Positions 266 through 47,925 of a DNA stretch of 48,372 bases are shown piece by piece. The notes beneath the pieces are model-generated. The model searched no databases. It saw nothing but the letters and a program-made list of their open reading frames with translations, and was not told where the DNA came from. This DNA comes from a virus. The DNA is taken from positions 1 to 48,372 of the IMG/VR virus record IMGVR_UViG_3300044712_000966. One strand, given 5' to 3'. How positions within the stretch are numbered: the stretch's first letter is position 1; each line of letters opens with the position of its first letter. The position numbers and the translations under genes are program-made.

Positions 266-705
266 CCCTCGGAATCACTGAGCTTTCCGCCCCTGGTGCG
301 TAGCCTCCTACGCGCCTCCTTCCGGGGCTGGTGCCTAGTGTTTCCAGGGGGTTGCGCTGGTAGCGTGTGGCACCAGTTTGGCAGTAGCTCCAGGGTGAGC
401 GCGCCTCACAGCGCGTGAGAAAACCGGGCGGAGTCCAGCGGCACGCGCTGATCTCGTAAGGCCCCTCGCAGCACGAAGTCTAAAACCGAATCCAGGGCGC
501 GGGCCCCTCGCCAAAAAACCCGCGAGTCAATGTGCGCGGCGATCCTCCGGTCCCGTGTCGCGAAACCCTGCGGAGCTATCCGCTAGGTGCGAAAGCGCCG
601 AAAAGGCTTTGCTGATCGGAGGGGCAATCAAAGCGCGCTGAGACTCTGAAGGTTCGTGAATCCATCGCAGGATCGATGCTGTTCACCAGTAGAAAGGGGC
701 ATGTC
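266..705. other. Gene-free stretch between terS and the early arm
   Basis: No convincing reading frame lies here; the short open frames lack ribosome binding sites and family features. It contains a short inverted repeat (GCGTAG at 298-303, CTACGC at 308-313) and the pair GCTGGTGCC / GGCACCAG around 327-376. The leftward terS promoter and the rightward early promoter should both be here, but I could not find a convincing -35/-10 pair for either. Confidence 0.4.
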
Positions 706-1038
706 ATGGCAGACACGATCGTTTCTCAGGCGGAAGGTGAGCGGATCTCGAAGGCGGAAGCCAAGTTCCGGGATCTCTCGAAGATGGAGGAGACCACCAG
801 CACGGATCTCTACCAGCGCGCGATCGAGTTCAACGCCGCGCAGGGTGAGGCGGTCCCGGGCGCGCAGGCCGCGCTGAAGATCGCCGCGGTCAACTACGCG
901 CGGGTGGCGCTGGCGCAGGACAAGATCCGGGCGCGCGTCACTAAGATGAAGGCGAAGCGGCTCGACAAGGCGCAGCGGATGCTGGCTCAGCTCCGCGCGG
1001 AAGCGGCCAAGCTCGGGATCGAGATCAAGGTCGCGTGA
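706..1038 (+). CDS. Hypothetical early protein, helical
   Basis: 110 aa, first gene of the rightward early arm. I do not recognise the family. It is almost entirely predicted helix and rich in Ala, Lys, Arg and Glu, with a basic C-terminal half (repeated KMKAKRLDKAQRMLAQLRAE pattern) that could bind nucleic acid or form a coiled coil. ATG 706 is chosen because AAAGGGG lies about 6 nt upstream; an in-frame ATG at 676 lacks such a site. A strong terminator follows directly (1046-1080). Confidence 0.65.
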   Translation: MADTIVSQAEGERISKAEAKFRDLSKMEETTSTDLYQRAIEFNAAQGEAVPGAQAALKIAAVNYARVALAQDKIRARVTKMKAKRLDKAQRMLAQLRAEAAKLGIEIKVA

Positions 1039-1045
1039 AAGAAAC

Positions 1046-1080
1046 GGGGCGGGTCCGGTAGAACCGGGCTCGCCCCTTTT
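1046..1080 (+). terminator. Intrinsic terminator after the first early gene, part of module 1
   Basis: GGGGCGGGTCCGG, a TAGA loop and the pairing arm CCGGGCTCGCCCC are followed by TTTT. The terminal CCTTTTC can then pair with GAAAGG at about 1120-1125, next to the ribosome binding site of the gene at 1140, with ATGCC/GGCAT pairing inside. This is the terminator plus RBS-covering hairpin layout repeated through the early arm. Confidence 0.75.
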
Positions 1081-1139
1081 CTCATGCCCAGTGAACCGTA
1101 TCGGCATTGCGACGAATTCACGAAAGGAGATGGAAACGA

Positions 1140-1346
1140 ATGGACAATCAAATCGGCAAGCGTGCCATGTCCTTTAACAAGGACAAGGAAACGCTCGAAG
1201 TAACGTTCCCGAGCGGTCATTCGATCCTGTATCCGAACGTGAGTGTTCGGATGCTCGATCGGATCCTCTCAGGAAAGCCCGATCGCATCGATCGCAAGAT
1301 CGACAGGATGCTCGCGGGCATCCAGATCCGCCGCAAGGGGAAGTGA
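1140..1346 (+). CDS. Small protein resembling a diverged KTSC domain
   Basis: 68 aa. ATG 1140 has AAAGGAGA upstream (about 1122-1129). The centre reads NKDKETLEVTFPSGHSILYP followed by VSVRMLDRILSG, matching the KTSC pattern (x-TLEV-x-F-x-x-G-x-x-Y-x-x-V) seen clearly in the protein at 3851-4069. The usual S-x-G-x-[YF] end is replaced by a basic tail with RIDRKIDRML. KTSC proteins are small and poorly characterised. The KTSC reading is inference from the pattern; it could be unrelated. Confidence 0.55.
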   Translation: MDNQIGKRAMSFNKDKETLEVTFPSGHSILYPNVSVRMLDRILSGKPDRIDRKIDRMLAGIQIRRKGK

Positions 1347-1366
1347 ACCCGCTGGAAATGAGAGAG

Positions 1367-1398
1367 ACGCTCCCGGGAAACCGGGGGCGTTTTCTTTT
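1367..1398 (+). terminator. Intrinsic terminator after the KTSC-like gene
   Basis: ACGCTCCCGG, a GAAA tetraloop and CCGGGGGCGT form a stable stem, followed by TTTCTTTT. The T-rich tract runs straight into GGAAAGGGTGGAAG, the ribosome binding region of the next gene (ATG 1415). Confidence 0.75.
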
Positions 1399-1414
1399 GG
1401 AAAGGGTGGAAGCA

Positions 1415-1729
1415 ATGATCACCACATTGGATCAGGACACACTGCGCGAGATGATCTCCAGCATCGCGCGGGGAAACCTGACGCTGATCGAGGTGAGGAG
1501 CAAGGCAGGAAACACCGGCGTCGCGCTCTGCATCAACGTGCCGGGCGCGCAGGAGAGCACGGGGTTGCGCTGGATCCCGATCGCCATCTTCGATCCCAGC
1601 CTGATCACGAAGGTTCTCCCGCACAACGGCCAGGGCTGGCGCGAGTTCGGGATGACAGTCGCGCTCGAAGGCGAGTGCGAGGCGAGCAACATCGAGATCG
1701 CGCCGAACATGGCGCCCGCGAGGGCGTGA
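1415..1729 (+). CDS. Hypothetical protein
   Basis: 104 aa, family not recognised. It begins with a short helical segment (MITTLDQDTLREMISSIARG) and continues with beta-rich sequence (TLIEVRSKAGNTGVALCINV; WIPIAIFDPSL). No membrane segment or zinc motif is visible. The start follows GGAAAGGGTGGAAGCA closely. The stop overlaps the next start (TGATG), so the two are probably co-translated. Confidence 0.6.
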   Translation: MITTLDQDTLREMISSIARGNLTLIEVRSKAGNTGVALCINVPGAQESTGLRWIPIAIFDPSLITKVLPHNGQGWREFGMTVALEGECEASNIEIAPNMAPARA

Positions 1730-1893
1730 TGACAACGAAGCGCGAACGAGAGGCGCTTCTCGAAAAGGCGCGCGATCGGTACGCGAGAGATTCGGACGAC
1801 GACATCGAGATCGATGACGACGCGAAGCTCTCCGAAACGGAAAACGGAACCTGGGTCCAGGCGTGGGTCTGGGTTCCCAAGGACGCCGACTGA
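1729..1893 (+). CDS. Small acidic protein with tryptophan-rich tail
   Basis: 54 aa. The N-terminus is basic and helical (TTKREREALLEKARDRYARD); an acidic stretch DDDIEIDDDAK and a C-terminal W-x-x-x-W-x-W segment (TWVQAWVWVPKD) follow. Small phage proteins with this charge layout are common but I cannot name a function. It is coupled to the upstream gene (TGATG) and followed directly by the terminator at 1900-1930. Confidence 0.55.
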   Translation: MTTKREREALLEKARDRYARDSDDDIEIDDDAKLSETENGTWVQAWVWVPKDAD

Positions 1894-1899
1894 AAACGA

Positions 1900-1944
1900 G
1901 CCCGGGGGCCTTCAAGCCTTCCGGGCCTTTTCAGTTAGGAGGGC
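1900..1944 (+). terminator. Terminator with the recurring CAGTTAG tail (module 2)
   Basis: GCCCGGGGGC, a CTTCAA loop and GCCTTCCGGGC are followed by CTTTTCAGTTAGGAGGG. The tail CTTTTCAGTTAG recurs after the terminators at 2281, 2825, 3362, 3780, 5081 and 7187. Here it sits directly before a tiny 11-codon frame. Confidence 0.75.
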
Positions 1945-1947
1945 ACA

Positions 1948-1983
1948 ATGGAAACCTTCGTGAGTGGATCAAAGAAGATATAA
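1948..1983 (+). CDS. Possible 11-residue leader peptide
   Basis: ATG 1948 lies 4 nt after a strong AGGAGGG and opens METFVSGSKKI followed by TAA. A large GC-rich hairpin (1988-2042) begins five bases after the stop, the layout of a leader peptide before an attenuator controlling the gene at 2074. It is too short to judge by coding bias; the good ribosome binding site could also be a by-product of the repeated module. Confidence 0.35.
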   Translation: METFVSGSKKI

Positions 1984-1987
1984 CCCT

Positions 1988-2062
1988 GGCCCGGCCCGCG
2001 GGAGAAACTTCCTGCCCCTCACAGCTCCCGTGGGTTCGGGCCGTTTCCCTGAAAGGAAACGG
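1988..2062 (+). promoter_or_regulatory. Double hairpin before the gene at 2074
   Basis: GGCCCGGCCCGCGGGAG (1988-2004) pairs with CTCCCGTGGGTTCGGGCC (2025-2042) around a 20-nt loop. It is followed at once by an 8-bp stem CCGTTTCC/GGAAACGG (2041-2048 with 2055-2062, loop CTGAAA) whose 3' arm runs into the GGAGG of the next gene. This is the same two-hairpin order as elsewhere in the early arm, though with different sequence. Confidence 0.6.
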
Positions 2063-2073
2063 AGGAACAAATC

Positions 2074-2271
2074 GTGGCCTATCACGCATTCAAGGGCCCC
2101 GAGGGAGACGAATACGGCTCCTTCGAGACCTTCGAGCTGGGCGCGGACGAAAGTCCGAATCCGGGCTGGTATTGGTGGGCGTGCTTCCCTGGATGCCTGC
2201 CAGACAGCGATCCGTTCGGCCCCTTCGCCACCGAACAGGAAGCGATCGACAACGCGCAAGAGGATGCCTGA
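2074..2271 (+). CDS. Small hypothetical protein
   Basis: 65 aa, GTG start with ACGGAGGAACAAATC upstream. The protein is acidic and aromatic (YHAFKGPEGDEYGSFETFE; NPGWYWWACFPGCLPDSDP) and ends in QEAIDNAQED. The pattern of a polar strand, then a W/C-rich centre with the field 'FGPFATEQEAIDNA', resembles small phage proteins of unknown role. No closer assignment is possible by eye. Confidence 0.55.
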   Translation: MAYHAFKGPEGDEYGSFETFELGADESPNPGWYWWACFPGCLPDSDPFGPFATEQEAIDNAQEDA

Positions 2272-2280
2272 GAGGAAAAC

Positions 2281-2356
2281 GCCCGGGGGCGCGAAAGCGC
2301 CTGCCGGGCCTTTCCAGTTAGAGGGGCTGGACTTCCTGGCCCGCAAACAGGAAAGG
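2281..2356 (+). promoter_or_regulatory. Terminator plus RBS-covering hairpin (module 3)
   Basis: The terminator stem GCCCGGGGGCGC-GAAA-GCGCCTGCCGGGC (2281-2309) is followed by CTTTCCAGTTAGAGGGGC. CCTTTCC (2309-2315) can pair with GGAAAGG (2350-2356), the ribosome binding site of the gene at 2366; inside it GGGC (2324-2327) pairs with GCCC (2339-2342). Terminator T-tract and anti-RBS are thus the same bases. Confidence 0.65.
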
Positions 2357-2365
2357 CGGAAACAA

Positions 2366-2752
2366 ATGGCGATCTACGGAAGCAAGGTGACGCTGCACGC
2401 GACCTTCTACGGCTTCAAGAAGTGGGAGAACGAGGAGGAGCCGCAGGACGTGAAGATCGTCTTCTCGCGCATCGTCCAGAGCGAGAAGATCGAGAAGCTC
2501 GTCCAGGCGCTCGTGAACGCGAAGGTCGGGTTCCGGTACGACCCGTCGAGCGGCTACGGCTCGGACGCGCGAGCGGAGATCAACCTCGGCTGGTACGCGC
2601 CGTCTCTGGAGGATCTCACCACGCTCCTCAACGCGCACGGCTTCGCGGTCGAGCGGAAGAACAGGATCGTGGAGAACTCGCAGGACATCACCGAGCTGGT
2701 GATGAAGGGCCTGTACGTCCCCGAGCCCGAGAAGGAGGCGGCGCAGGCGTAA
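2366..2752 (+). CDS. Hypothetical protein
   Basis: 128 aa; ATG 2366 follows GGAAAGGCGGAAACAA. The N-terminus is strand-rich (AIYGSKVTLHATFYGFKKW) and the middle alternates helices and strands (SEKIEKLVQALVNAKVGFRY; SLEDLTTLLNAHGFAVERK). The tail is acidic (VPEPEKEAAQA). I do not recognise the family. Intergenic hairpins flank it on both sides, so it is probably expressed as its own unit. Confidence 0.6.
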   Translation: MAIYGSKVTLHATFYGFKKWENEEEPQDVKIVFSRIVQSEKIEKLVQALVNAKVGFRYDPSSGYGSDARAEINLGWYAPSLEDLTTLLNAHGFAVERKNRIVENSQDITELVMKGLYVPEPEKEAAQA

Positions 2753-2757
2753 ATCTC

Positions 2758-2812
2758 GGCCGCACATAGATGCGGCCCGTGGGGGCGGGGGCTTTTGAAG
2801 CCTCGCCCCCGG
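2758..2812 (+). terminator. Two consecutive hairpins after the gene at 2366
   Basis: GGCCGCA-CATAGA-TGCGGCC begins about 5 nt after the stop codon. It is followed by GGGGGCGGGGGCTT-TTG-AAGCCTCGCCCCC and then GGTTTG. Both are stable stems; the second is the stronger terminator candidate. A third hairpin at 2825 belongs to the recurring module. Confidence 0.6.
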
Positions 2813-2824
2813 TTTGTCCTGGGA

Positions 2825-2887
2825 GCCCCGGCGGATTCTCCGCGCGGGGCCTTTCCAATTAGAGGGGCAATGACGCCCTGGAAAAGG
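2825..2887 (+). promoter_or_regulatory. Terminator plus RBS-covering hairpin (module 4)
   Basis: The stem GCCCCGGCGGA-TTC-TCCGCGCGGGGC (2825-2850) is followed by CTTTCCAATTAGAGGGGC. CCTTTCCA (2850-2857) pairs with TGGAAAAGG (2879-2887) with one bulged base, enclosing GGGC (2865-2868) / GCCC (2875-2878). The paired 3' arm contains the AAAAGGAGA ribosome binding site for ATG 2896. Confidence 0.65.
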
Positions 2888-2895
2888 AGAAGCAA

Positions 2896-3141
2896 ATGGA
2901 GAACGTGGTGCAGAACCTCGACGTGGCGCAGGACGCCAACGGCGACGATCGCGTCTTCTCCGAGCGGCGTCTCGCGTCGCTCGCGAAGAACGCGGTGAAG
3001 GGCTCCCGCTGCCCGCACGGCCGGAAGTGGGCGGTGACGGAGTGGTCGATCCGGATCAACGGGAACGTCGTCCTCCACGTCTACGTGGAGTGCCCGCACG
3101 ATCTCGACAAGCAGAAGGCGGAGTTCAACGTCGTCCTCTGA
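2896..3141 (+). CDS. Hypothetical protein
   Basis: 81 aa. ATG 2896 follows AAAAGGAGAAGCAA. The protein has a C-P-H-G-R-K-W motif (SRCPHGRKWAVTEWSI) and a second C-P-H (YVECPHDLDKQKAEF), a paired C-x-H arrangement that might bind a metal. The middle is beta-rich (WSIRINGNVVLHVYVE). Family not recognised. A zinc-ribbon gene follows after 12 nt. Confidence 0.55.
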   Translation: MENVVQNLDVAQDANGDDRVFSERRLASLAKNAVKGSRCPHGRKWAVTEWSIRINGNVVLHVYVECPHDLDKQKAEFNVVL

Positions 3142-3153
3142 AGGCGGCCGGTC

Positions 3154-3354
3154 ATGCTCGCCTGCGAAGAGTGTGGATGGAAAGGATCGACAGACGAGGC
3201 CGGCGTGAAGTCTTCACGCTTCGAGGATGCGGTCGAAGGAACGCGCGGGTCTTTCCGCATCCTCGTCTGCCCCGACTGCGAGCATCCCGTGAACGAAGGA
3301 TTCTCCGAGCTGGTGGAGGAGGAGGACGAGGAAACGCTGGAGCTGCCGTTCTGA
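3154..3354 (+). CDS. Zinc-ribbon protein
   Basis: 66 aa. Two cysteine pairs, CEECGWKG near residue 4 and CPDCEHPV near residue 39, form a C-x2-C / C-x2-C zinc ribbon. The C-terminus is strongly acidic (ELVEEEDEETLELPF). Such proteins usually touch nucleic acid or partner proteins, but the target here is unknown. The start is the first ATG after the upstream stop. Confidence 0.6.
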   Translation: MLACEECGWKGSTDEAGVKSSRFEDAVEGTRGSFRILVCPDCEHPVNEGFSELVEEEDEETLELPF

Positions 3355-3361
3355 GCGAAAA

Positions 3362-3437
3362 GGCCCGGTTTCGCGGATCCGTTTCGGATTCTCGAGATCG
3401 GGCCTTTTTAGTTGAGGGGCTTCTCCCTCGCACAAGG
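3362..3437 (+). promoter_or_regulatory. Terminator plus RBS-covering hairpin (module 5)
   Basis: A long imperfect stem from GGCCCG (3362) to CGGGCC (3404) is followed by TTTTTAGTTGAGGGGC. Here the second hairpin has changed sequence but kept pairing: inner GAGGG (3414-3418) with CCCTC (3425-3429), outer CCTT (3403-3406) with AAGG (3434-3437) at the ribosome binding site of ATG 3446. The change from GGGC/GCCC to GAGGG/CCCTC is covariation supporting a real structure. Confidence 0.6.
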
Positions 3438-3445
3438 AGAAAACA

Positions 3446-3763
3446 ATGGCCGAGTCTTTCAGCGTCGTCGCCTCCGGACTGGACGTGAACGTGCAGGCGA
3501 ACATGCAGCCGATGATCGAGCACGCCTCGAAGCAGACGGCGGAGTTCTTCAAGCGGTACATCTCCATGAAGGAGGACGACGCGGTGCAGCCGCAGATGAA
3601 CGAGATCGTCCTCATCCTCGCGGCGATCTGCAACGTCTTCTTCGCCGGCGTGGACCCGACGGCGCAGGCGGGCCTGATCCAGTTCTCGCGGGAGATCGCC
3701 CAGGGCGCGCGGAAGTACGTGGAGGAGTTCGAGAAGGAGCTGGCGGCGAAGAAGACCGCCTGA
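3446..3763 (+). CDS. Hypothetical helical protein
   Basis: 105 aa. ATG 3446 follows AAGGAGAAAACA. Predicted mostly helical, with a hydrophobic central helix (NEIVLILAAICNVFFAGVD) too polar at its ends to be a confident membrane segment, and a C-terminal amphipathic helix (AQGARKYVEEFEKELAAKK). Family not recognised; the fold resembles a small helical bundle. Confidence 0.55.
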   Translation: MAESFSVVASGLDVNVQANMQPMIEHASKQTAEFFKRYISMKEDDAVQPQMNEIVLILAAICNVFFAGVDPTAQAGLIQFSREIAQGARKYVEEFEKELAAKKTA

Positions 3764-3779
3764 TCTGCACCGGCAAAGA

Positions 3780-3843
3780 GCCCGCCTCCAGAATCTTGGG
3801 GGCGGGCCTTTCCAGTTAGAGGGCAACAACGCCCCTGGAAAGG
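3780..3843 (+). promoter_or_regulatory. Terminator plus RBS-covering hairpin (module 6, best copy)
   Basis: The stem GCCCGCCTCCA to TGGGGGCGGGC (3780-3807) is followed by CTTTCCAGTTAGAGGGC. CCTTTCCAG (3807-3815) is perfectly complementary to CTGGAAAGG (3835-3843), which includes the ribosome binding site of the KTSC gene; inside it GGGC (3821-3824) pairs with GCCC (3831-3834) around AACAAC. Confidence 0.7.
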
Positions 3844-3850
3844 GAAAGCG

Positions 3851-4069
3851 ATGACGCTCGAAGTGCAGAGCAGCAACCTGAAGAACGTCGCGTACAACGC
3901 GACGGACAAGAGCTTGGAGGTGGAGTTCCGCAACGGTCGGAAGTACCGCTACACGAACGTCCCGCCGGAAATCTTCGACGGGCTCGTGAACGCGGACTCG
4001 ATCGGCGGCTTCTTCCACAAGCACATCCGGTTCTCCTTCAAGTACGAGGAGATCGGGGAGAGGAACTGA
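3851..4069 (+). CDS. KTSC domain protein
   Basis: 72 aa; the KTSC domain fills the protein. Diagnostic features are VQSSNLKNVAYN at the start, KSLEVEFRNGRKYRYTNVP in the middle and SIGGFFHKHI near the end. KTSC domains occur in many phages and bacteria; their role is not established. The ribosome binding site is inside the 9-bp pairing of module 6. The DUF932 gene starts two bases after its stop, so these are co-transcribed. Related proteins lie at 1140-1346 (diverged) and 47207-47548. Confidence 0.8.
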   Translation: MTLEVQSSNLKNVAYNATDKSLEVEFRNGRKYRYTNVPPEIFDGLVNADSIGGFFHKHIRFSFKYEEIGERN

Positions 4070-4071
4070 TC

Positions 4072-5055
4072 ATGCCCGCGAACGTGGAAACCATGATGTA
4101 CGTCGGGGACCGCCCGTGGCACGGGATCGGAACCCCGGTGCTGGACACCATCACCTCGCAGGAGGCGATCGAGAAGGCCGGGCTGAACTGGGACGCGGAT
4201 CTCGTTCCCCTCCAGATTCCGGCGTGGACGACGAGCGCCGGCTTCGTGATCGAGCCGAAGGTCGTGGACGACGTGCGCGCGGTGGTGCGCGCGACGGACG
4301 GGAAGATCCTGGGGCGCGTCGGCCCCGGCTACCACGTCATCCAGAACCGCGACGGCTTCGCCGCCTTCGATCCGCTCGTGAAGGAGGGATACCTGAAGTA
4401 TCACACCGCCGGCTCGCTCGGCGGCGGCCAGCGGATCTGGATCCTCTGCCAGCTCCCGGGCGACATGGTGCTCCCGGGCGACACCTCGAAGATCCAGAAG
4501 TTCCTCCTCCTCGCCAACGCGCACGACGGGACGATGGCGCTCCGCGTGATGCCGACGCCGATCCGCGTCGTGTGCTCGAACACGCTCGCCGCCGCGCTGG
4601 CGGACGAAGTGGCGAGCTACACCGTGCGCCACACCATCTCCGCGCCCGACCGGATCAAGGACGCGGTGGAGGCGATGAAGGCGACGCTCCTCTACTACGA
4701 TCGCTTCCAGGCGGAAGCGGAGCGGCTCCAGATCGCGCGGTACTCCCTGGAGCAGATGACGGCCCTCACGCACCACCTCATGCCGCTGCCGCGCGAGGAA
4801 GAGCCGAAGCCGAAGCTCCTCCGCGCGCACGAGACGCTGATCAACCTCTTCGAGATGCAGAAGGGCGCCGAGGGGATCCGCGGGACGGCGTGGGGCGCGG
4901 TGAACGCGGTGGCGCAGTACGCCGACCACGAGCGCAGCGTGCGCGACGGCGACGACGGGGCGGGCGGCGCGCGGCTGAAGAGCGCGCTGTTCGGGCCGGC
5001 GGCGGCGATGAAGAGCCGCGCGTACCAGTACGTGAAGCGGCAGATCGTGAACTGA
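4072..5055 (+). CDS. DUF932 family phage/plasmid-like protein
   Basis: 327 aa, the usual length for this family. It starts MPANVETMMYVGDRPWHGIG, matching the W-H-x-x-G-x-x-V start typical of DUF932 (TIGR03299) proteins, and contains the conserved GPGYHVIQN and VVCSNTLAAAL segments. The family is common on phages and plasmids; a nucleic-acid role is often suspected but not established. It begins 2 nt after the KTSC gene and ends before a terminator at 5081. Confidence 0.8.
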   Translation: MPANVETMMYVGDRPWHGIGTPVLDTITSQEAIEKAGLNWDADLVPLQIPAWTTSAGFVIEPKVVDDVRAVVRATDGKILGRVGPGYHVIQNRDGFAAFDPLVKEGYLKYHTAGSLGGGQRIWILCQLPGDMVLPGDTSKIQKFLLLANAHDGTMALRVMPTPIRVVCSNTLAAALADEVASYTVRHTISAPDRIKDAVEAMKATLLYYDRFQAEAERLQIARYSLEQMTALTHHLMPLPREEEPKPKLLRAHETLINLFEMQKGAEGIRGTAWGAVNAVAQYADHERSVRDGDDGAGGARLKSALFGPAAAMKSRAYQYVKRQIVN

Positions 5056-5080
5056 GCCTCGCGCTCTCCCTGGAAGTCGA

Positions 5081-5123
5081 GCCCGGTTCCCATTTCGGGG
5101 GCCGGGCTTTTCCAGTTGGAGGC
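5081..5123 (+). terminator. Terminator with CCAGTTGGAGG tail (module 7)
   Basis: The stem GCCCGGTTCCC to GGGGGCCGGGC (5081-5107) is followed by TTTTCCAGTTGGAGGC. In this copy the TTCCAG tail is complementary to CTGGAA at about 5070-5075, upstream of the terminator, instead of to the ribosome binding site. GGAGG in the tail itself serves ATG 5131. Confidence 0.7.
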
Positions 5124-5130
5124 GACGAAC

Positions 5131-5298
5131 ATGAAGGCCCAAAGCGGAGCAATCTGCGATTGCGACGTTTGCGGCCGGCAGGGTCGCTTCCTGGCAATCG
5201 TGAGGATTGCCGGGTGGCGGGTCCTTTGCGCGCGGTGCGCAAAGGAAATGGCTGCAACCGTGGTGTTTCGCATACTCGAAGGAGGAAAGGTCAAATGA
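5131..5298 (+). CDS. Small zinc-ribbon protein
   Basis: 55 aa. CDCDVCGRQG near residue 9 and CARCAKEM near residue 33 give two cysteine pairs separated by a short beta segment (FLAIVRIAGWRVL). ATG 5131 is chosen over an in-frame TTG at 5116 because GGAGGCGACGAAC lies just upstream. Its stop overlaps the next start (ATGA), so the two are coupled. Function unknown. Confidence 0.6.
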   Translation: MKAQSGAICDCDVCGRQGRFLAIVRIAGWRVLCARCAKEMAATVVFRILEGGKVK

Positions 5299-5837
5299 GC
5301 AACGCCAAAGTGTACCTCGGATGGCACATCAGCAAGAAGGAAACCATGCCGCACGGCGACGGCCGGAAGATCCGGCCCGGTGCGGTCTTCGGTGTCGAGG
5401 GCCCAATCGAAATCTGCTGCAACGGGCTTCACGCCTCCCCGACGCTGGAGGGAGCGATCTCCTACGTCAACACGATCTTCGAGGCTGGCGAGCCGGATGC
5501 CCTGGTCTCGTTCGTGGAGGTCTGGGGCGAGGTGAAGGATCAGGGCGGGAAGTTCTGTGGCCGTTTCCGCCGCCACGTCGCCGTCGGGAAGATCACCTAC
5601 GCGGAGCAGAAGGCGATCCGTAACGGTGAGGACGGCTGGGAGAGGATCGTGGGCGAGGTGATGGCGAGAACCCTCCACGGCCACTCCACCCGGAGCGAGC
5701 GTCCTGCCGCCGACGGCCTGGCGCGGTTCAAGGACCACAGCACCGGGTTCGGCTACGACCGCGAGACCCGGCTCTACAACGCGCTGAAGCGGAAGAGGAA
5801 CGGCAACGGCCAGAAGAAGGCGAGGAAGGCGGCCTGA
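5295..5837 (+). CDS. Hypothetical protein, DUF7666-like N-terminus
   Basis: 180 aa. The N-terminal third has the pattern seen in phage proteins of the DUF7666 type: VYLGWHISKKE, G-x-V-F, then CCNGLHASPTLEGAISYV, where a G-L-H-A-S turn precedes a helix. The middle is charged (WGEVKDQGGKFCGRFRRHVA). The C-terminus is basic (ALKRKRNGNGQKKARKAA). Function unknown. It is coupled to the zinc-ribbon gene upstream (ATGA) and separated by 2 nt from the DUF2786 gene. Confidence 0.55.
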   Translation: MSNAKVYLGWHISKKETMPHGDGRKIRPGAVFGVEGPIEICCNGLHASPTLEGAISYVNTIFEAGEPDALVSFVEVWGEVKDQGGKFCGRFRRHVAVGKITYAEQKAIRNGEDGWERIVGEVMARTLHGHSTRSERPAADGLARFKDHSTGFGYDRETRLYNALKRKRNGNGQKKARKAA

Positions 5838-5839
5838 CC

Positions 5840-6550
5840 ATGAGCCCCGAGAACATCCGGGAGAAGATCAGGAAGCTCCTGGCTCTCTCCAACTCCGACA
5901 ATCCGCACGAGGCGGCGCTCGCCGCCGAGCGGGCGCAAGCCCTCATCCTTCAGTTCAACGTCTCCCAGGACGAGCTGAAGGATCCGGCCGACAAGATCCC
6001 CGACGAGCCGGTCGAGGTCGAAGCGATGGGCGGCTTCGCGAAGGACGGGAAGAAGACGCGCATCCCGCACTGGCAGCCCTGCCTCGCGCTCCACCTCGCG
6101 AAGGCGTTCATGTGCCGGATCTACTACCAGCCCGGCTACGACATCTTCATGGTCGGGCGGCGCACGAACCGCGACGCGCTCCGGATGACGTGGATCTACC
6201 TCCGCAACGAGATCGAGCGCATGGCGGAGGTCACCTACGAGCGGACGCCCGAGGCGCAGTTCACCGAGAAGGTGACGTGGAAGCGCGCCTTCTGCGAGGG
6301 CGCCACCTCCACCGTCTTCCAGCGCATGAGCGCGGAGGTCCGGAAGCTGGAGATCGACACGACGAAGACGGCGATCGTTCTCCGGAGCCGGATGGCCGAG
6401 GTCGAGAAGTTCATGGAGAAGATCCCGCTGCGGACGGCGCACGCGCCGCGGCGGCCGATCTCGAACGGCTTCCGCGAGGGCCAGCAAGCCGGTCACAGCC
6501 TCAACCTCAAGGGCAAGGCGGCGCGCGGCCTGCCGAGCACGGGGACGTGA
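5840..6550 (+). CDS. DUF2786 family protein
   Basis: 236 aa. Residues 1-45 match the DUF2786 start (IREKIRKLLALSNSDNPHEA, then AALAAERAQALILQFNV). The remainder, with HLAKAFMCRIYY, FMVGRRTNRDALRMTWIYL and FCEGATSTVFQRM, matches the longer domain that usually follows it in phage members. The family is widespread in phages and its function is not known. Placed between two small genes with 2-nt gaps, apparently one transcription unit. Confidence 0.75.
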   Translation: MSPENIREKIRKLLALSNSDNPHEAALAAERAQALILQFNVSQDELKDPADKIPDEPVEVEAMGGFAKDGKKTRIPHWQPCLALHLAKAFMCRIYYQPGYDIFMVGRRTNRDALRMTWIYLRNEIERMAEVTYERTPEAQFTEKVTWKRAFCEGATSTVFQRMSAEVRKLEIDTTKTAIVLRSRMAEVEKFMEKIPLRTAHAPRRPISNGFREGQQAGHSLNLKGKAARGLPSTGT

Positions 6551-6552
6551 TC

Positions 6553-6831
6553 ATGACGACGCCACGCACATGGAAGGATCAGCCGGCGATTCTGGAGGGG
6601 GCGAAGATCAAGACCTCCTTCCACATCGCGCCGGTTTCAGTGGAGGTCCGCGAGGCGAGCGACGGTTCGTACTATGTGACCGTCGGTACGCTGTTCTGGA
6701 GCCAAACGCTCTGGGCTCCGCACGCGGACAAGGTTCTCGACTGCATCGAGTACGTGAAGAAGAACGTTGGTCGAGAGCCGCGGGTCCAGATTCCTCCGCC
6801 CGAGGGCACGCGCCTGATGGAGGAACCATGA
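6553..6831 (+). CDS. Hypothetical protein
   Basis: 92 aa. The sequence alternates short strands (KTSFHIAPVSVEVREA; SYYVTVGTLFWSQTLW) and one helix (ADKVLDCIEYVKKNVG), ending in a proline-rich acidic tail. No family recognised. It starts 2 nt after the DUF2786 gene and overlaps the next start (ATGA), so it belongs to the same operon. Confidence 0.55.
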   Translation: MTTPRTWKDQPAILEGAKIKTSFHIAPVSVEVREASDGSYYVTVGTLFWSQTLWAPHADKVLDCIEYVKKNVGREPRVQIPPPEGTRLMEEP

Positions 6832-7175
6832 ACGACGAGGAAAAGGCGGCTCGGTACGAACGGCTGCCGAAATGGGCGCAGGAGGAGATCGCGCTTCTGG
6901 AGATGCGCCTGAAGGAAGCGTGCGCGGAACGGGACGCGGCGATCGCCGCGCCTCAGAGCAACGTGGCGATCAGGCGATGGGCCGCAGAGCCCGGCGAACC
7001 GAAGGAGCGTTGGCTTCCCGAGAACGCGGAAGTCACGTTCTACGTCGGGAAAAGCCGGGACCGGATCGCCGTGAGGATCAGCGACAACGGCGTCACCGTC
7101 AACGCCTGGTGCGGAATGCTCCGGGTCTCGCCGCGTGCTGCCAACTCCATCCTCATCGAAGCCGCAGATCGCTGA
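6828..7175 (+). CDS. Hypothetical phage protein with RLPKWAQ motif
   Basis: 115 aa. The N-terminus YERLPKWAQEEIALLEMRL matches a motif common in small phage proteins (a short RLPKWAQ start followed by a helix), possibly the DUF7239 group. The C-terminal half is strand-rich (AEVTFYVGKSRDRIAVRISD). Its role is unknown. It is coupled to the preceding gene by an ATGA overlap and is the last gene before the module at 7187. Confidence 0.6.
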   Translation: MNDEEKAARYERLPKWAQEEIALLEMRLKEACAERDAAIAAPQSNVAIRRWAAEPGEPKERWLPENAEVTFYVGKSRDRIAVRISDNGVTVNAWCGMLRVSPRAANSILIEAADR

Positions 7176-7186
7176 CTGGACTACTG

Positions 7187-7247
7187 GCCGGGATCGCCTC
7201 CGCGCGGTCCCGGCTTTTCCAGTTAGGGGCACCCTCGCCCCAGGAAA
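7187..7247 (+). promoter_or_regulatory. Terminator plus RBS-covering hairpin (module 8)
   Basis: The stem GCCGGGATCGC-CTCC-GCGCGGTCCCGGC (7187-7214) is followed by TTTTCCAGTTAGGGGC. TTTCC (7216-7220) pairs with GGAAA (7243-7247), the ribosome binding site of ATG 7258; inside it GGGGC (7226-7230) pairs with GCCCC (7237-7241). Confidence 0.65.
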
Positions 7248-7257
7248 GGAAAGAGCA

Positions 7258-7737
7258 ATGTTCATCCTCTGGCCCAACGGCCGAAAGAAGCCGTACTGGC
7301 ACGGAATCAACGCCCCGCACGCGGGGATGATCTGCGGTCAATCGACTCCGGACGGAGCCTACGTGTGCTGCCGCCACCGGGATCACTTGAACGATCCGGC
7401 CGCCAGGCGTCCCGGGCTGCATCTCGCGTTCATGCCGGTCGGTGGACACCTCGAAAACGTCGCGGAGTGGCTGGAGGGAGACCGGAACGTTCCCGAATAT
7501 TGGGACCGGGACGACATCCAGATTCCGCCCTCGCCCACGCTCCCGTCTTCTCCGTGCCCTCCGCCGGCGATGACGAAGCCGTGCCCCCCGGATCCCCCGG
7601 CGCTGATCTCGCGCGACCGGCAGACCGCCGTCTTTTACGGGGAGGTCTACGAGCTGGACCTCATCCCCGACGCGACGAACGAGGACTACCGGAATCTCCC
7701 CACTCTGGAGCAGCTCAACAAAATGAGAAGGGGATGA
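7258..7737 (+). CDS. Hypothetical protein with cysteine/histidine N-terminus
   Basis: 159 aa; ATG 7258 follows CAGGAAAGGAAAGAGCA. The N-terminal part carries HAGMICGQ and YVCCRHRDHL, possible metal ligands, and HLAFMPVGGHLENVAEWLEG. A proline-rich linker (PPSPTLPSSPCPPPAM) then leads to a small C-terminal domain (YGEVYELDLIPDATNEDY). I do not recognise it. The next gene starts 3 nt downstream. Confidence 0.55.
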   Translation: MFILWPNGRKKPYWHGINAPHAGMICGQSTPDGAYVCCRHRDHLNDPAARRPGLHLAFMPVGGHLENVAEWLEGDRNVPEYWDRDDIQIPPSPTLPSSPCPPPAMTKPCPPDPPALISRDRQTAVFYGEVYELDLIPDATNEDYRNLPTLEQLNKMRRG

Positions 7738-7740
7738 GAG

Positions 7741-7959
7741 ATGGGAGACACCACGGGAGCAACCGCCCGTATCACCCGCCGATCCGACGAGATTTTCCTT
7801 TGGTGGAATCGCCTGGAGCGCGATCTGCGTGTCTTCTTCGCCAGGATGCCGGACGACGTGCTGCGGTTCTTCGCGGAGGAAGCCGCCTTTGATTCCTTCG
7901 TGCGGGACACCGCCGCCCAGATGCGCAAGGAGCGCAGAAAGGCCGGTCACCAACGCTGA
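7741..7959 (+). CDS. Small hypothetical protein
   Basis: 72 aa. After a short polar start, the protein looks helical and amphipathic (DEIFLWWNRLERDLRVFF; DDVLRFFAEEAAFDSFVRD), with a basic end (MRKERRKAGHQR). No family recognised. It ends before a strong palindromic terminator. Confidence 0.5.
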   Translation: MGDTTGATARITRRSDEIFLWWNRLERDLRVFFARMPDDVLRFFAEEAAFDSFVRDTAAQMRKERRKAGHQR

Positions 7960-7970
7960 ATGCGGGTTCC

Positions 7971-8010
7971 CGTGACGTGAGCACGTCACGAGAACGCAGG
8001 ACCGATTTTT
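7971..8010 (+). terminator. Terminator with perfect 20-bp palindrome
   Basis: CGTGACGTGAGCACGTCACG (7971-7990) is a near-perfect inverted repeat extended by flanking GTTC/GAAC, and TTTTT follows at 8006-8010. It closes the unit starting at 7258. The perfect palindrome could also be a protein-binding site. Confidence 0.6.
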
Positions 8011-8114
8011 AACTGGACAAGCGGGATGATTACCCCTTTGACAAGCCGAGAGTTCACCAATGGTCGGGGAGTAAAGGGGGAAGAGGGCAGCAAAAGCAGA
8101 AGGAGAAAATCACC

Positions 8115-8363
8115 ATGGGTGGAGTCAGTCCGATCGGGGAGGTGCTCGCGTTCTATGAGGGACCACGGTCCACCACAGAAGACGCGGTGAAGCTTCTACT
8201 GGGGGATCTCATGGACTGGGCAGACGAACTCGACACGTCGAGCCCTGAGTATCTCGCGCTGGTCGATGCCGTTGCCGAGGCGGCCGAGCGAACGGTGAAA
8301 CGACTCACGAAGGAGAAGAAAACGGAGAGGCCGAGGCGGCGAGCGCCGCTACGGCTTCTGTAG
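8115..8363 (+). CDS. Small hypothetical protein
   Basis: 82 aa; ATG 8115 follows AGAAGGAGAAAATCACC, a strong site. The sequence is helical and acidic (TTEDAVKLLLGDLMDWADEL; LALVDAVAEAAERTVKRL) with a very basic tail (KEKKTERPRRRAPLRLL). Family not recognised. It is the last early-arm gene before the attachment region and would be a terminal gene of the integrated prophage. Confidence 0.6.
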   Translation: MGGVSPIGEVLAFYEGPRSTTEDAVKLLLGDLMDWADELDTSSPEYLALVDAVAEAAERTVKRLTKEKKTERPRRRAPLRLL

Positions 8364-8473
8364 GGGGATGGAAACGACTGGCACCGGACCCGGACTGATC
8401 GTCTGGGCCGCGGTGCCGAGTCGTGAGATGGTGCCGGGCCAAGGGTGGGCCAAGACTGCCTCTCCGAACGGGG

Positions 8474-8500
8474 TTGACGCGATCGAGATTCCCCTGTATT
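8474..8500 (+). promoter_or_regulatory. Promoter-like sequence ahead of the tRNA-Ser 5' half
   Basis: TTGACG (8474-8479), a 15-bp spacer and TGTATT (8495-8500) lie 9 bp before the first tRNA base. The spacer is short. If real, integration would put the rebuilt host tRNA under this phage-carried promoter. Confidence 0.4.
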
Positions 8501-8509
8501 CACGCCCGC

Positions 8510-8554
8510 GGAGAGCTGGCCGAGCTGGTCGAAGGCGCCTGACTCGAAAGCAGG
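8510..8554 (+). pseudogene. 5' half of a tRNA-Ser(CGA) gene
   Basis: GGAGAGC (acceptor 5' strand), TG, GCC...GGC (D stem with GAGCTGGTCGAA loop), then CCTGA-CTCGAAA-GCAGG (anticodon arm, anticodon CGA at 8545-8547). Bases 31 and 39 (A, G) do not pair. No variable arm, T arm or acceptor 3' strand follows: no TTCGA-type T loop is present in the next 200 bp. It is therefore a truncated tRNA, best explained as the part of attP that restores the host gene after integration. Confidence 0.75.
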
Positions 8555-8682
8555 AAACAGGCCCCTCCAACTACCCTAAACCATTGGAAATACGATCCGC
8601 TGGAGTGGCCGGAAATGGCCCTCGCGGAGCGCGCTGGGCCAAGGGTGGGCCAAAGCACTCTGCGTCCGGGTGGTGATGAGTG

Positions 8683-8711
8683 TTGACGCGAGCCCCGACC
8701 GGGGGTGTAAT
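8683..8711 (+). promoter_or_regulatory. Sigma70-type promoter for the gene at 8757
   Basis: TTGACG (8683-8688), a 17-bp spacer and TGTAAT (8706-8711) give the best consensus match in the window. Transcription would start near 8718, about 39 nt before ATG 8757. It lies just right of the second arm repeat, so in the prophage it would sit at the chromosome edge and drive inward. Confidence 0.6.
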
Positions 8712-8756
8712 CCGGCCCTCTCAAACGGCGGGCAGGGGGGCCGCGGGGACAGGCCA

Positions 8757-9041
8757 ATGAGAAAGGTCGTGGTGAAGGGGATTTACGCTGCGTATGCGCT
8801 GCGCGCCGGGCTGGGAACCGTGCGGCACAAGTTCCCGCCGGCCGTCTCGGTGACGCGCGAGGAGCGCGAGCGCATCGCGGAGATGGCGAAGGAGGCGAAG
8901 CGCCGCAGGAAGACGGAAGAGGCGCCGCCGCCCACCATCGAGCAGCCGACGCCTCTTCAGGACTTCTTCCGGGAGGTCGCCATGAGCGAGGCGGTTCCGG
9001 CCGAGCTGCGAAAGAGGGCGTTCGGGCTCCTTGTCGGTTAG
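8757..9041 (+). CDS. Hypothetical protein beside attP
   Basis: 94 aa. ATG 8757 is chosen because the promoter at 8683-8711 puts the transcript start at about 8718, downstream of other possible starts. It has a basic helical middle (TREERERIAEMAKEAKRRRK), a proline-rich linker and a C-terminal helical segment (LQDFFREVAMSEAVPAELRK). Family not recognised. Its stop codon shares bases with the stop of the convergent HNH gene. Its position beside attP would suit a prophage-expressed gene. Confidence 0.55.
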   Translation: MRKVVVKGIYAAYALRAGLGTVRHKFPPAVSVTREERERIAEMAKEAKRRRKTEEAPPPTIEQPTPLQDFFREVAMSEAVPAELRKRAFGLLVG

Positions 9042-35109: not shown

Positions 35110-35133
35110 GGTATTTCCTCCACCGGAAGGAAC

Positions 35134-35162
35134 GCGGGGCCTATTTCATGCGCCGGCCCCGC
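35134..35162 (-). terminator. Attenuator hairpin after the capsid gene
   Basis: Read on the minus strand, GCGGGGCC and GGCCCCGC pair around a 13-nt loop just after the capsid stop. There is no long T-tract, so it is more likely an attenuator or mRNA-stabilising hairpin that lowers downstream expression relative to capsid. Confidence 0.5.
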
Positions 35163-35177
35163 TATGGCGCTCGCCGG

Positions 35178-46324: not shown

Positions 46325-46671
46325 TTCATCCTCCCGTCGGCGCGGAGCCCGGTGTTCGGGATGACCTGTACGCAGCGGTCATCCCACAGCTCGATCATCC
46401 CGTAGTCTTTCTCGTTGGTGATCGGGAGCCGCTGGCCGAGGTGTTCGGCGCACCAATCCTCGATCCTGGCGCGGACGGCGCGCTCCTCCTCGACGGTGGC
46501 GCTGACCTGATTGACGCGCGCCGTGAAGATCCGCACGTCCTTTCCCTCCGACAGCCACGTCTTCACGCGATCGACCATGATGGGGACGGGTTCCCCAATG
46601 TGCATCTCGCCCTGCCAGCCGTCGTATGCCGCCAGCGTGCCGTCGAGATCGACTCCGATCCATCCACTCAT
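46321..46671 (-). CDS. HAD-like phosphatase
   Basis: 116 aa. WIGVDLDGTLA (D8, D10) is HAD motif I; IFTAR (T50) is motif II; NEKDYGMIELWDDR (K88, D97, D98) covers motifs III and IV. Small HAD proteins of this type occur in many phages, with nucleotide or polynucleotide phosphates as suspected substrates. Coupled to the dNTP hydrolase upstream. Confidence 0.7.
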   Translation of the reverse strand: MSGWIGVDLDGTLAAYDGWQGEMHIGEPVPIMVDRVKTWLSEGKDVRIFTARVNQVSATVEEERAVRARIEDWCAEHLGQRLPITNEKDYGMIELWDDRCVQVIPNTGLRADGRMK

Positions 46672-47210
46672 GGTTTATCCTCGATCGTGTAGTGGTGCGG
46701 GTGCTTGTCCTTGTGCCGCTCGATCAGGCGGGCTACCTCGGGCGTCAGCTCCGCGAACATGGCTTCGAGGTCCACCGCGTCCGGCGGCCGGTCGTCGATG
46801 AAGTTCCGGCAGGCGATCGCGTCAATCAGGATCACGAGCGTCGCCAGCGCGTGCGCGAGGTGCGGGCGCCCCGAGTCCGGATCCATCTCGATCCCGCCCT
46901 CGAATTTGGCGAGGTGGCGTCGGCAGGCGTCGAGGTAGACGGAGACGCGGATCGGCGGACCCGGGGGCCGCCAGTTCCAGCGGCCGTACTTGAGCGCGCC
47001 GTCGAGCAGAGCGAGCGCACACTGCGCGATCGCGGTCTGGGGGACGAGCGAGAGCGGAAGCTTCATGCTGCCCAGCACGTCCTTCGGGTTCGGGATCGGC
47101 GGGGGCAGCGGCGGCTCGCGGAACACCATCCCGCCGGTGGGGCCGACAACGGGAGCTGCGTCCTGAATCGAGAGCGGACACTCCGGGCTGCCGCAGGAAC
47201 AGACGCTCAT
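46668..47210 (-). CDS. dATP/dGTP diphosphohydrolase-like protein (DUF5664)
   Basis: 180 aa. NPKDVLGSMKLPLSLVPQTA, then LLDGALKYGRWNWR, VSVYLDACRRHL and HLAHALATLVILID match the N-terminal domain of phage dATP/dGTP diphosphohydrolases. A cysteine-rich start (CSCGSPECPL) is unusual. It would hydrolyse dNTPs and so shape the nucleotide pool. No PurZ-like enzyme is visible, so a base-substitution pathway is not supported here. Confidence 0.65.
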   Translation of the reverse strand: MSVCSCGSPECPLSIQDAAPVVGPTGGMVFREPPLPPPIPNPKDVLGSMKLPLSLVPQTAIAQCALALLDGALKYGRWNWRPPGPPIRVSVYLDACRRHLAKFEGGIEMDPDSGRPHLAHALATLVILIDAIACRNFIDDRPPDAVDLEAMFAELTPEVARLIERHKDKHPHHYTIEDKP

Positions 47211-47548
47211 TCGACGTGCTCGTATTCGTAGAGGGTGGGCATCACGTACTTCGCGTAGAAGCCTTTCGAGGGCGCCGCCCAGAACGCCGCCCAGCCATCG
47301 GCCGGCACGCCGTAGTAGCGGTAGAGCCGGCGGTACTTCGTGAACCAGATTTCCATCTCCTGCGTGTCGGGGTCGTAGGCCGCGGAGTCGATGTTCGAGC
47401 TGGGCACCGGGACGTGCGCGAAGGTCCCCGCCACCGACCCCGCCGCCGCCGACAGGGCGTCCTCGGAGCCTTCGATGAGGGCCCCAGCGGCCCGCGCCAG
47501 CAGCGCCAGGAGGTCGGGGGGAGGTGAGGGCGGGGGGACCCGTGCCAT
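47207..47548 (-). CDS. KTSC domain protein with N-terminal extension
   Basis: 113 aa. After a proline/alanine-rich N-terminal helix, VPSSNIDSAAYDPDTQEMEI, RLYRYYGVP and APSKGFYAKYV form a KTSC domain similar to the early protein at 3851-4069. First gene of the minus-strand nucleotide-enzyme unit, following a GGAAGCAC-TTGACA promoter. The transcript leader would be under about 15 nt. Confidence 0.7.
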   Translation of the reverse strand: MARVPPPSPPPDLLALLARAAGALIEGSEDALSAAAGSVAGTFAHVPVPSSNIDSAAYDPDTQEMEIWFTKYRRLYRYYGVPADGWAAFWAAPSKGFYAKYVMPTLYEYEHVE

Positions 47549-47562
47549 CGCGTCTGGGAGGC

Positions 47563-47599
47563 AGCGTGCAGCGCCGCGCGCGTGGTGTCAAGTGCTTCC
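47563..47599 (-). promoter_or_regulatory. Promoter with operator half site
   Basis: GGAAGCACTTGACACC (47599-47584) on the minus strand, identical to 12573-12588, with CACGCT at the -10 spacing of 17 bp (47568-47563). It would drive the KTSC and nucleotide-enzyme genes. Confidence 0.55.
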
Positions 47600-47925
47600 A
47601 GGCGGGGCTACCGATGATCACCAACGGTCTTGAGCCCGAAGGTGAAGGCTTCTGAGCTGTGTGGAGGTCGTTTTCCCGGGGGTCCCCCTGCCCCCTCTCG
47701 GAAAGGCGACAGCATCAAGGGGGAAGTGCTTCACGAGCGGCAATCTGTGTAGCTCGGCCGCTGCGAGCGTCTCAGATACTCAGGGGGGTGAGGCATTTTA
47801 GCGGCGCCCCCTGGAAGCACGTCAATCACCGGATGGAAGCAGTCGCTTCCAAGTCCGCGGAACCATGGGAGAGCCTATTTTGGGGCCCCGAAAAACGCTC
47901 AAGCGAGGGCGCTTTAGTTCCAGCT
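47600..47925. promoter_or_regulatory. Regulatory stretch between terS and the nucleotide-enzyme genes
   Basis: No gene is visible. It carries the operator-type palindrome GGAAGC-AGTC-GCTTCC (47835-47850) and another half site (47813-47818). On the minus strand TTGACG (47825-47820) is followed by TAAAAT (47800-47795; a spacer of 19), a possible extra promoter. A short stem before TTTTT just after the terS stop might be a weak terminator. Confidence 0.5.

What the first reader, a model, noticed from the sequence alone, without database searches (positions are those of the whole stretch)
1046..7247. A repeated early-arm RNA module: terminator whose T-tract re-pairs with the next ribosome binding site
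At least five intergenic gaps (2281, 2825, 3362, 3780, 7187) and probably 1046 share the order: GC-rich terminator stem, tail CCTTTCCAGTTAG, short inner stem, then a GGAAAGG ribosome binding site complementary to the tail. The inner stem covaries (GGGC/GCCC, GGGGC/GCCCC, GAGGG/CCCTC) and the best copy (3807-3843) has a perfect 9-bp outer stem. The gaps at 1900, 1988 and 5081 use related but altered forms. The same bases would thus help stop transcription and hide the next start site, a compact way to insulate each gene. The layout recalls repeat-associated start elements of other phages but differs in using the terminator tract.
Basis: partly seen in the sequence, partly recalled or inferred. 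Interest (0 to 1): 0.8.

Follow-up and report, generated by a model that had tools for sequence, protein, structure and literature searches.

The report
Repeated terminator–ribosome-site boundaries in phage
One arm of an uncharacterised temperate phage genome has a strong stop-transcription hairpin in every real gap between its small genes; seven of these share a conserved tail running straight into the next gene's ribosome-binding site, but the tail convincingly folds onto that site in only two of the gaps.

Summary
The repeat is real. Seven + strand gaps (stems at 1900, 2281, 2825, 3362, 3780, 5081, 7186) carry a GC-rich terminator-like hairpin followed by Y-TTT-YCARTTRG and then the next gene's SD. 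Every gap of at least 30 nt between 1038 and 7258 (10 of 10) holds a strong hairpin, against 6 of 13 weaker ones elsewhere. Five long forms also have a small GC hairpin between tail and SD (combined p about 2e-6 against shuffles).

The claimed tail–SD pairing is partly real. It beats this phage's other SDs (p about 0.004), and 34 terminator/SD junctions in other phages show no such bias. But two copies (2271 and 3763 gaps) carry the signal; without them p = 0.19. In the 3362, 5081 and 7186 copies the tail folds mainly upstream, lengthening the terminator. There is no covariation. RBS accessibility is ordinary. No related genome with this arm was found.

With no room for a promoter between tail and start codon, downstream genes must be read through the hairpins. 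That argues against complete insulation and for leaky, or antitermination-relieved, terminators fused to the next ribosome-loading site. Best reading: cassette boundaries of a co-transcribed accessory arm, with SD masking in at least two.

The parts
1046..1076 (+). terminator-like hairpin + TTTTCTC, gap 1038-1140; no CAGTTAG tail
   Evidence: -28.6 kcal/mol; found by the terminator scan
1367..1390 (+). terminator-like hairpin ACGCTCCCGG-GAAA-CCGGGGGCGT + TTTTCTTTT, then GGAAAGGG SD; gap 1346-1415
   Evidence: -23.5 kcal/mol; weak sub-threshold Rfam match only
1900..1926 (+). terminator stem, short form; upstream arm GACTGAAAA (1889-1897, includes stop codon) can pair with the tail
1926..1942 (+). 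conserved tail CCTTTTCAGTTAG running directly into SD GGAGG; start codon 1948
1988..2042 (+). long terminator-like hairpin, divergent form
   Evidence: -27.9 kcal/mol
2041..2062 (+). divergent tail CCGTTTCC pairing 8 bp with GGAAACGG next to SD of gene 2074
   Evidence: rank 0.07
2281..2309 (+). terminator stem, long form
   Evidence: -24.7 kcal/mol
2309..2356 (+). tail CCTTTCCAG, inner hairpin GGGCTGG/CTGGCCC (2324-2342), SD GGAAAGG (2350-2356) complementary to the tail
   Evidence: rank 0.02 among the phage's SDs; formed in ensemble
2780..2811 (+). additional terminator-like hairpin upstream of the 2825 copy
   Evidence: -24.7 kcal/mol
2825..2850 (+). terminator stem, long form
   Evidence: sequence; folds
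2850..2887 (+). tail CCTTTCCAATTAG, inner hairpin GGGC/GCCC, SD TGGAAAAGG (bulged 8-bp complement)
   Evidence: rank 0.25
3357..3408 (+). terminator stem with A-tract/U-tract extension; tail pairs upstream
   Evidence: -36.2 kcal/mol; 5.7 expected tail:upstream pairs, 0 tail:SD
3403..3439 (+). tail CCTTTTTAGTTGAG, inner hairpin GAGGG/CCCTC, SD AAGGAG (only 4-bp complement)
   Evidence: rank 0.57; inner hairpin p 0.006
3780..3807 (+). terminator stem, long form
   Evidence: -25.6 kcal/mol
3807..3843 (+). best copy: 9-bp outer stem 3807-3815/3835-3843, inner hairpin GGGC/GCCC; masks SD of gene 3851
   Evidence: rank 0.007; 6.3 expected tail:SD pairs; opening cost 21.6 kcal/mol
5070..5107 (+). 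terminator, short form, with upstream arm CTGGAAG (5070-5076) pairing with the tail
   Evidence: 8.9 expected tail:upstream pairs; p 0.0135
5107..5122 (+). tail CTTTTCCAGTTG running into SD GGAGG; start codon 5131
7172..7214 (+). terminator (7186-7214) with upstream arm CTGACTGGA (7172-7180, overlaps stop codon)
   Evidence: 7.0 expected tail:upstream pairs; p 0.007
7214..7249 (+). tail CTTTTCCAGTTAG, inner hairpin GGGGC/GCCCC, SD AGGAAAGG (7 bp with one G-U to the tail)
   Evidence: rank 0.14; inner hairpin p 0.0025

Best explanation
These are cassette boundaries in a co-transcribed accessory (probably early) arm. Each is a strong intrinsic-terminator-like hairpin whose 3' flank is fused directly to the next cassette's ribosome-loading site. 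Shown by sequence and folding: stem, shared tail YTTTYCARTTRG, inner GC hairpin in long forms, SD and start codon close behind the stem, and no promoter-like site or space for one. Inferred: the polymerase must pass each hairpin to express the next cassette, so the hairpins act as leaky (or antitermination-relieved) terminators and 3'-end protectors that step expression down along the arm. The tail is bifunctional: in some copies it folds back on sequence near the upstream stop codon and lengthens the terminator (3362, 5081, 7186, partly 1900); in at least two (2271 and 3763 gaps) it folds forward onto the next SD, so read-through message carries a masked start site.
For: 10 of 10 gaps of 30 nt or more in 1038-7258 hold a strong hairpin (-17.8 to -36.2 kcal/mol) within 21-82 nt of the next start, against 6 of 13 weaker ones elsewhere. 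Conserved tail 7 times, one strand, one arm. Inner hairpin in 5 of 5 long forms, Fisher p 1.7e-6. Tail:upstream pairing Fisher p 4.5e-4 and tail:SD p 2.8e-5 against shuffles. Tail:SD against 74 real SDs p 0.004, carried by two copies. Other phages' junctions show no such bias. No sigma70-like promoter in 400-9000.
Against: No transcript data. U-tracts are short and interrupted by C (CTTTCC), so termination may be weak or absent. RBS accessibility of these genes is ordinary overall. The conserved GTTAG is explained neither by the terminator nor by SD pairing (it lies in the bulge), so something else may select it. The promoter scan assumes sigma70 hexamers and the host is unknown.
Confidence: 0.5

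Rival explanations
1. One reading: each module terminates transcription and its tail hides the next SD, insulating each gene.
For: Perfect 9-bp and 7-bp outer stems in the 3763 and 2271 gaps; middling complementarity in the 1983, 2752 and 7175 gaps; other phages lack the bias.
Against: Signal vanishes without two copies (p 0.19); tail folds upstream in 3362, 5081 and 7186; accessibility ordinary; no covariation; short forms leave no room for SD masking by an outer stem; downstream genes need read-through.
Confidence: 0.2
2. Antitermination architecture: a barrage of terminators silences the arm in the prophage, and an antitermination factor or cis RNA (lambda N/nut, HK022 put or Tn916 type) makes polymerase resistant after induction. 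The tail or inner hairpin could be a recurrent loading site.
For: Integrase and HTH regulator indicate a temperate phage; ten hairpins and no internal promoters. put RNA suppresses termination in the HK022 early genes (PMC9378689); Tn916 combines an insulating terminator with antitermination (PMC11658703).
Against: No N/Q-like protein in PHROGs or Pfam scans; no Rfam match above threshold; inner-hairpin loops are not conserved in sequence.
Confidence: 0.2
3. Intercistronic processing sites: RNA is cut in the unpaired CAGUUA linker between the two hairpins (RNase E-like), giving each cassette its own message with a protected 3' end and a 5' hairpin, as T7 does with RNase III.
For: Explains conservation of the otherwise unexplained GTTA linker, the two flanking hairpins in long forms and the absence of promoters. 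The RNase E and T7 comparisons are from general knowledge.
Against: Short forms lack the second hairpin; no cleavage data; host and its RNases unknown.
Confidence: 0.15
4. Mobile cassette joints: the 18-bp tail is kept as a homology patch for recombination that shuffles gene cassettes, as proposed for promoter/stem-loop cassettes of T4-type phages.
For: Tail nearly identical while stems, loops and genes differ; phage carries a RecE/Cas4-like exonuclease.
Against: No related genome to show shuffling; no promoter in the joint, unlike the T4-type cassettes as recalled; tail also fits the RNA-structural roles.
Confidence: 0.1

Closest known systems
Start-associated sequences, SAS and extended SAS (ESAS), Cluster K mycobacteriophages (PMC3203893)
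   Same: Repeated element at translation starts of a subset of small non-structural genes, one orientation; about half with an added inverted repeat just upstream.
   Different: SAS core GGGATAGGAGCCC is absent here (2 matches at 2 mismatches, chance 1.7). Here the conserved part is a terminator tail and the stems differ in sequence from copy to copy, whereas ESAS inverted repeats share a consensus.
Promoter/stem-loop mobile cassettes of T4-type phages (Arbiol et al. 2010, Genome Biol Evol 2:140; paper not held, recalled)
   Same: Terminator-like stem-loop in gaps between small accessory genes, repeated along an arm.
   Different: As recalled, those carry an early promoter after the stem-loop; none fits or was found here.
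Leaky intercistronic terminators, such as that before gene III of filamentous phages (general knowledge)
   Same: Terminator immediately upstream of the next RBS, passed by read-through. An inovirus-like contig (L076) even has CTTTTCAGTTAGGGGAGG-N5-ATG after the terminator that follows its coat-like gene.
   Different: Single site there; here seven tailed copies plus an inner hairpin.
HK022 put / lambda nut antitermination and Tn916 antitermination (PMC9378689, PMC11658703)
   Same: Many terminators in an early or transfer operon of a temperate or integrative element.
   Different: No antitermination protein or put-like family match found here.

Membership tests
Intrinsic (Rho-independent) terminator | GC-rich stem-loop | tested here: met
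   -17.8 to -36.2 kcal/mol at ten gaps; stem sequences differ between copies while pairing is kept
Intrinsic (Rho-independent) terminator | U-rich tract directly after the stem | tested here: inconclusive
   three to five U, often interrupted by C (CTTTCC); only 1046 passes the strict 5-of-8 scan on + among these gaps
Intrinsic (Rho-independent) terminator | transcripts end there | not testable with these tools
   no RNA data
Cluster K SAS/ESAS | 13-bp GGGATAGGAGCCC overlapping the RBS | tested here: not met
   chance-level matches only
Cluster K SAS/ESAS | imperfect inverted repeats of shared consensus just upstream of the start-associated repeat | tested here: not met
   stems here differ in sequence between copies
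T4-type promoter/stem-loop cassette | promoter between stem-loop and next gene | tested here: not met
   0 sigma70-like sites in 400-9000; 9-44 nt between tail and start codon
SD-sequestering translational element | SD paired in the native RNA | tested here: inconclusive
   predicted in the 2271 and 3763 gaps only; accessibility otherwise ordinary
SD-sequestering translational element | pairing conserved by covariation in relatives | tested here: inconclusive
   no relative with this arm found; none among the copies
Lambda-type antitermination system | N/Q-like protein or put/nut element | tested here: not met
   no PHROGs, Pfam or Rfam match; divergent forms not excluded

The most novel reading that the evidence does not exclude
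A reusable two-way RNA switch: the terminator's own tail can pair either with a segment overlapping the upstream gene's stop codon (closing a longer terminator, next SD free) or with the next gene's SD (terminator shorter, SD hidden). A ribosome at the upstream stop codon would then decide both read-through and translation of the next gene, repeated along an operon.
Probability: 0.1. Interest if true: 0.75.

Novelty: new variant of a known kind. Interest (0 to 1): 0.42.

Why it matters
If the hairpins are leaky or relieved by antitermination, this arm is a compact example of how a phage grades or gates a run of small genes without internal promoters. The shared tail with two possible partners would link termination and translation start in one 12-nt segment, testable with reporters. 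It also shows that apparent covariation read by eye between paralogous copies can come from a constant G-rich arm pairing in shifted registers.

Tried and rejected
Generic complementarity (any U/C tail pairs with any SD): tested on 34 junctions of other phages, mean rank 0.535, so rejected as the full explanation. Global SD hiding: rejected, accessibility ordinary. Phage-RNAP or sigma70 promoter in the repeat: no site, no RNAP gene. Known RNA family: none above threshold.

Relatives: megablast, terminase, portal, MCP, DUF932 and phrog_421 searches gave only distant kin (best terminases 50-51% in L201 and L281, short contigs that do not reach this arm). The full-module pattern is absent from viral contigs and an 18-mer of the tail from 745 genomes bar one chance-like match.

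The genome-contig scan was wasted on too loose a pattern: many of its hits are one conserved coding stretch (RPFQLVTGRVWKGTAFGG, read by eye as an alcohol dehydrogenase). The 40 viral matches to CCTTTYCAGTTAGRGG are at about the number I estimate for chance; three follow a GC-rich stem (L045, L070, L076), too few to claim a wider family. A covariance model was not built because MAFFT did not align the stems in register.
Full report
What the record is. The window is a whole IMG/VR virus record of 48,372 bases, GC 0.656. Terminase, portal and major head proteins lie on the minus strand; an integrase, a RecE/Cas4-like exonuclease and an HTH protein lie on the plus strand, so it is a temperate tailed phage. 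Its terminase resembles short-tailed phages at about 30% identity. The plus-strand arm from 0.7 to 8.4 kb encodes small proteins, mostly without family matches, plus a KTSC-domain protein, a DUF932-type protein and a phrog_421 protein (the DUF932 name is from general knowledge). Calling the arm 'early' is inference.

Is the repeat real? Yes. Allowing two mismatches, the tail pattern occurs seven times, all on the plus strand and all between 1926 and 7229. Every gap of at least 30 nt from 1038 to 7258 contains a strong hairpin followed by a pyrimidine-rich tract, 21-82 nt before the next start codon; the rest of the genome has such hairpins in 6 of 13 gaps and weaker. In distantly related phage loci typically a minority of gaps have a strong one. 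Stems and loops differ completely between copies while pairing is kept; the tail is almost invariant.

The inner hairpin. All five long copies have a small GC hairpin between TTAG and the SD; combined p is 1.7e-6 against shuffles of each segment (segment ends were chosen by eye, so this is somewhat optimistic). Its 5' side is the same G-rich run in each copy, so the different 3' partners are not covariation in the usual sense.

The tail:SD stem. Against shuffled SD regions the five long copies give p 2.8e-5. The stricter test uses the phage's own other SD regions, because SDs are all purine-rich: p is 0.004 for the five, but ranks are 0.007 (3763), 0.02 (2271), 0.14 (7175), 0.25 (2752) and 0.57 (3354); without the two best (and counting the other three junctions with room) p is 0.19. 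As a control for triviality, 34 junctions in other phages with a terminator 26-65 nt before a start have mean rank 0.535 and 6% at or below 0.1. So two of the copies have a specific outer stem, and the others are not distinguishable from ordinary SDs one by one.

The other partner. In complete junction RNA the tail pairs upstream in 3354, 5055 and 7175 and partly in 1893 and 2752. Upstream arms such as GACTGAAAA (1889-1897), CTGGAAG (5070-5076) and CTGACTGGA (7172-7180) match the tail better than shuffles at p about 0.01 each, Fisher p 4.5e-4 over seven copies. Two of these arms overlap the upstream stop codon. This is ordinary for terminators with an A-tract, but it creates a competition with the SD.

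Does it hide ribosome sites? Not as a class: opening costs are 13.2 kcal/mol for the ten hairpin-preceded starts and 14.4 for 65 others (p 0.53). Only gene 3851 stands out, at 21.6.

Mechanism. No sigma70-like promoter exists in 400-9000. Only 9-12 nt (short forms) or 29-44 nt (long forms) separate tail and start codon. Cassettes downstream are therefore most likely transcribed through the hairpins, which makes full insulation unlikely and points to leaky terminators, terminators relieved by antitermination, or processing sites. No antitermination protein, phage RNA polymerase or known RNA family was found. The conserved GTTAG, unpaired in most models, is best explained by processing or by a bound factor; this stays open.

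Comparison. SAS/ESAS of Cluster K mycobacteriophages (PMC3203893; passages) are the nearest described repeats at starts, but the core is absent and the inverted repeats there share a consensus. Terminator-then-RBS joints with the same tail letters occur singly in two unrelated viral contigs, L070 and L076, which is close to chance given the search. HK022 put (PMC9378689) and Tn916 (PMC11658703), known here from their abstracts, show that antitermination of barrier terminators is established elsewhere.

Limits. No close relative with this arm was found in any collection searched, so evolutionary tests of pairing could not be done. The host is unknown. Fisher combinations treat copies as independent although their tails are homologous, so those p values overstate the evidence.

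Noticed in passing
8436-8653: 5' half of a tRNA-Ser(CGA)-like gene (8510-8551) with a promoter-like TTGACG-17-TATTCA before it, flanked by two identical 18-bp repeats GGGCCAAGGGTGGGCCAA (8436, 8636): a likely attP that would carry a new 5' tRNA half; no full tRNA by ARAGORN.
   Followed up: partly
1948-1983: Eleven-codon ORF (METFVSGSKKI) with a good SD, sandwiched between two strong hairpins (1900 and 1988): leader-peptide-like.
   Followed up: no
35110-35177 (- strand): Gap after the major head gene has a terminator GCGGGGCC...GGCCCCGC whose tail GTTCCTTCC is complementary to the next SD GGAGGAA (7 pairs with one G-U), without CAGTTAG; rank 0.25.
   Followed up: partly
2755-2816: Extra hairpins (CGGCCGCACATAGATGCGGCCCG and a strong terminator-like stem) stacked before the 2825 module; looks like an insertion or duplicated terminator.
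   Followed up: no
L076 3060-3125: Inovirus-like contig with CTCCCCCTTTTCAGTTAGGGGAGGGTGGTATG after the terminator that follows a coat-like gene; same tail letters as the window's short form, possibly convergent.
   Followed up: partly
46668-47621 (- strand): Protein whose C-terminal part matches endolysin profiles of the 'inhibits RNA polymerase' (T7 lysozyme-like) family, E 2.6e-50, with a 177-residue N-terminal extension.
   Followed up: no
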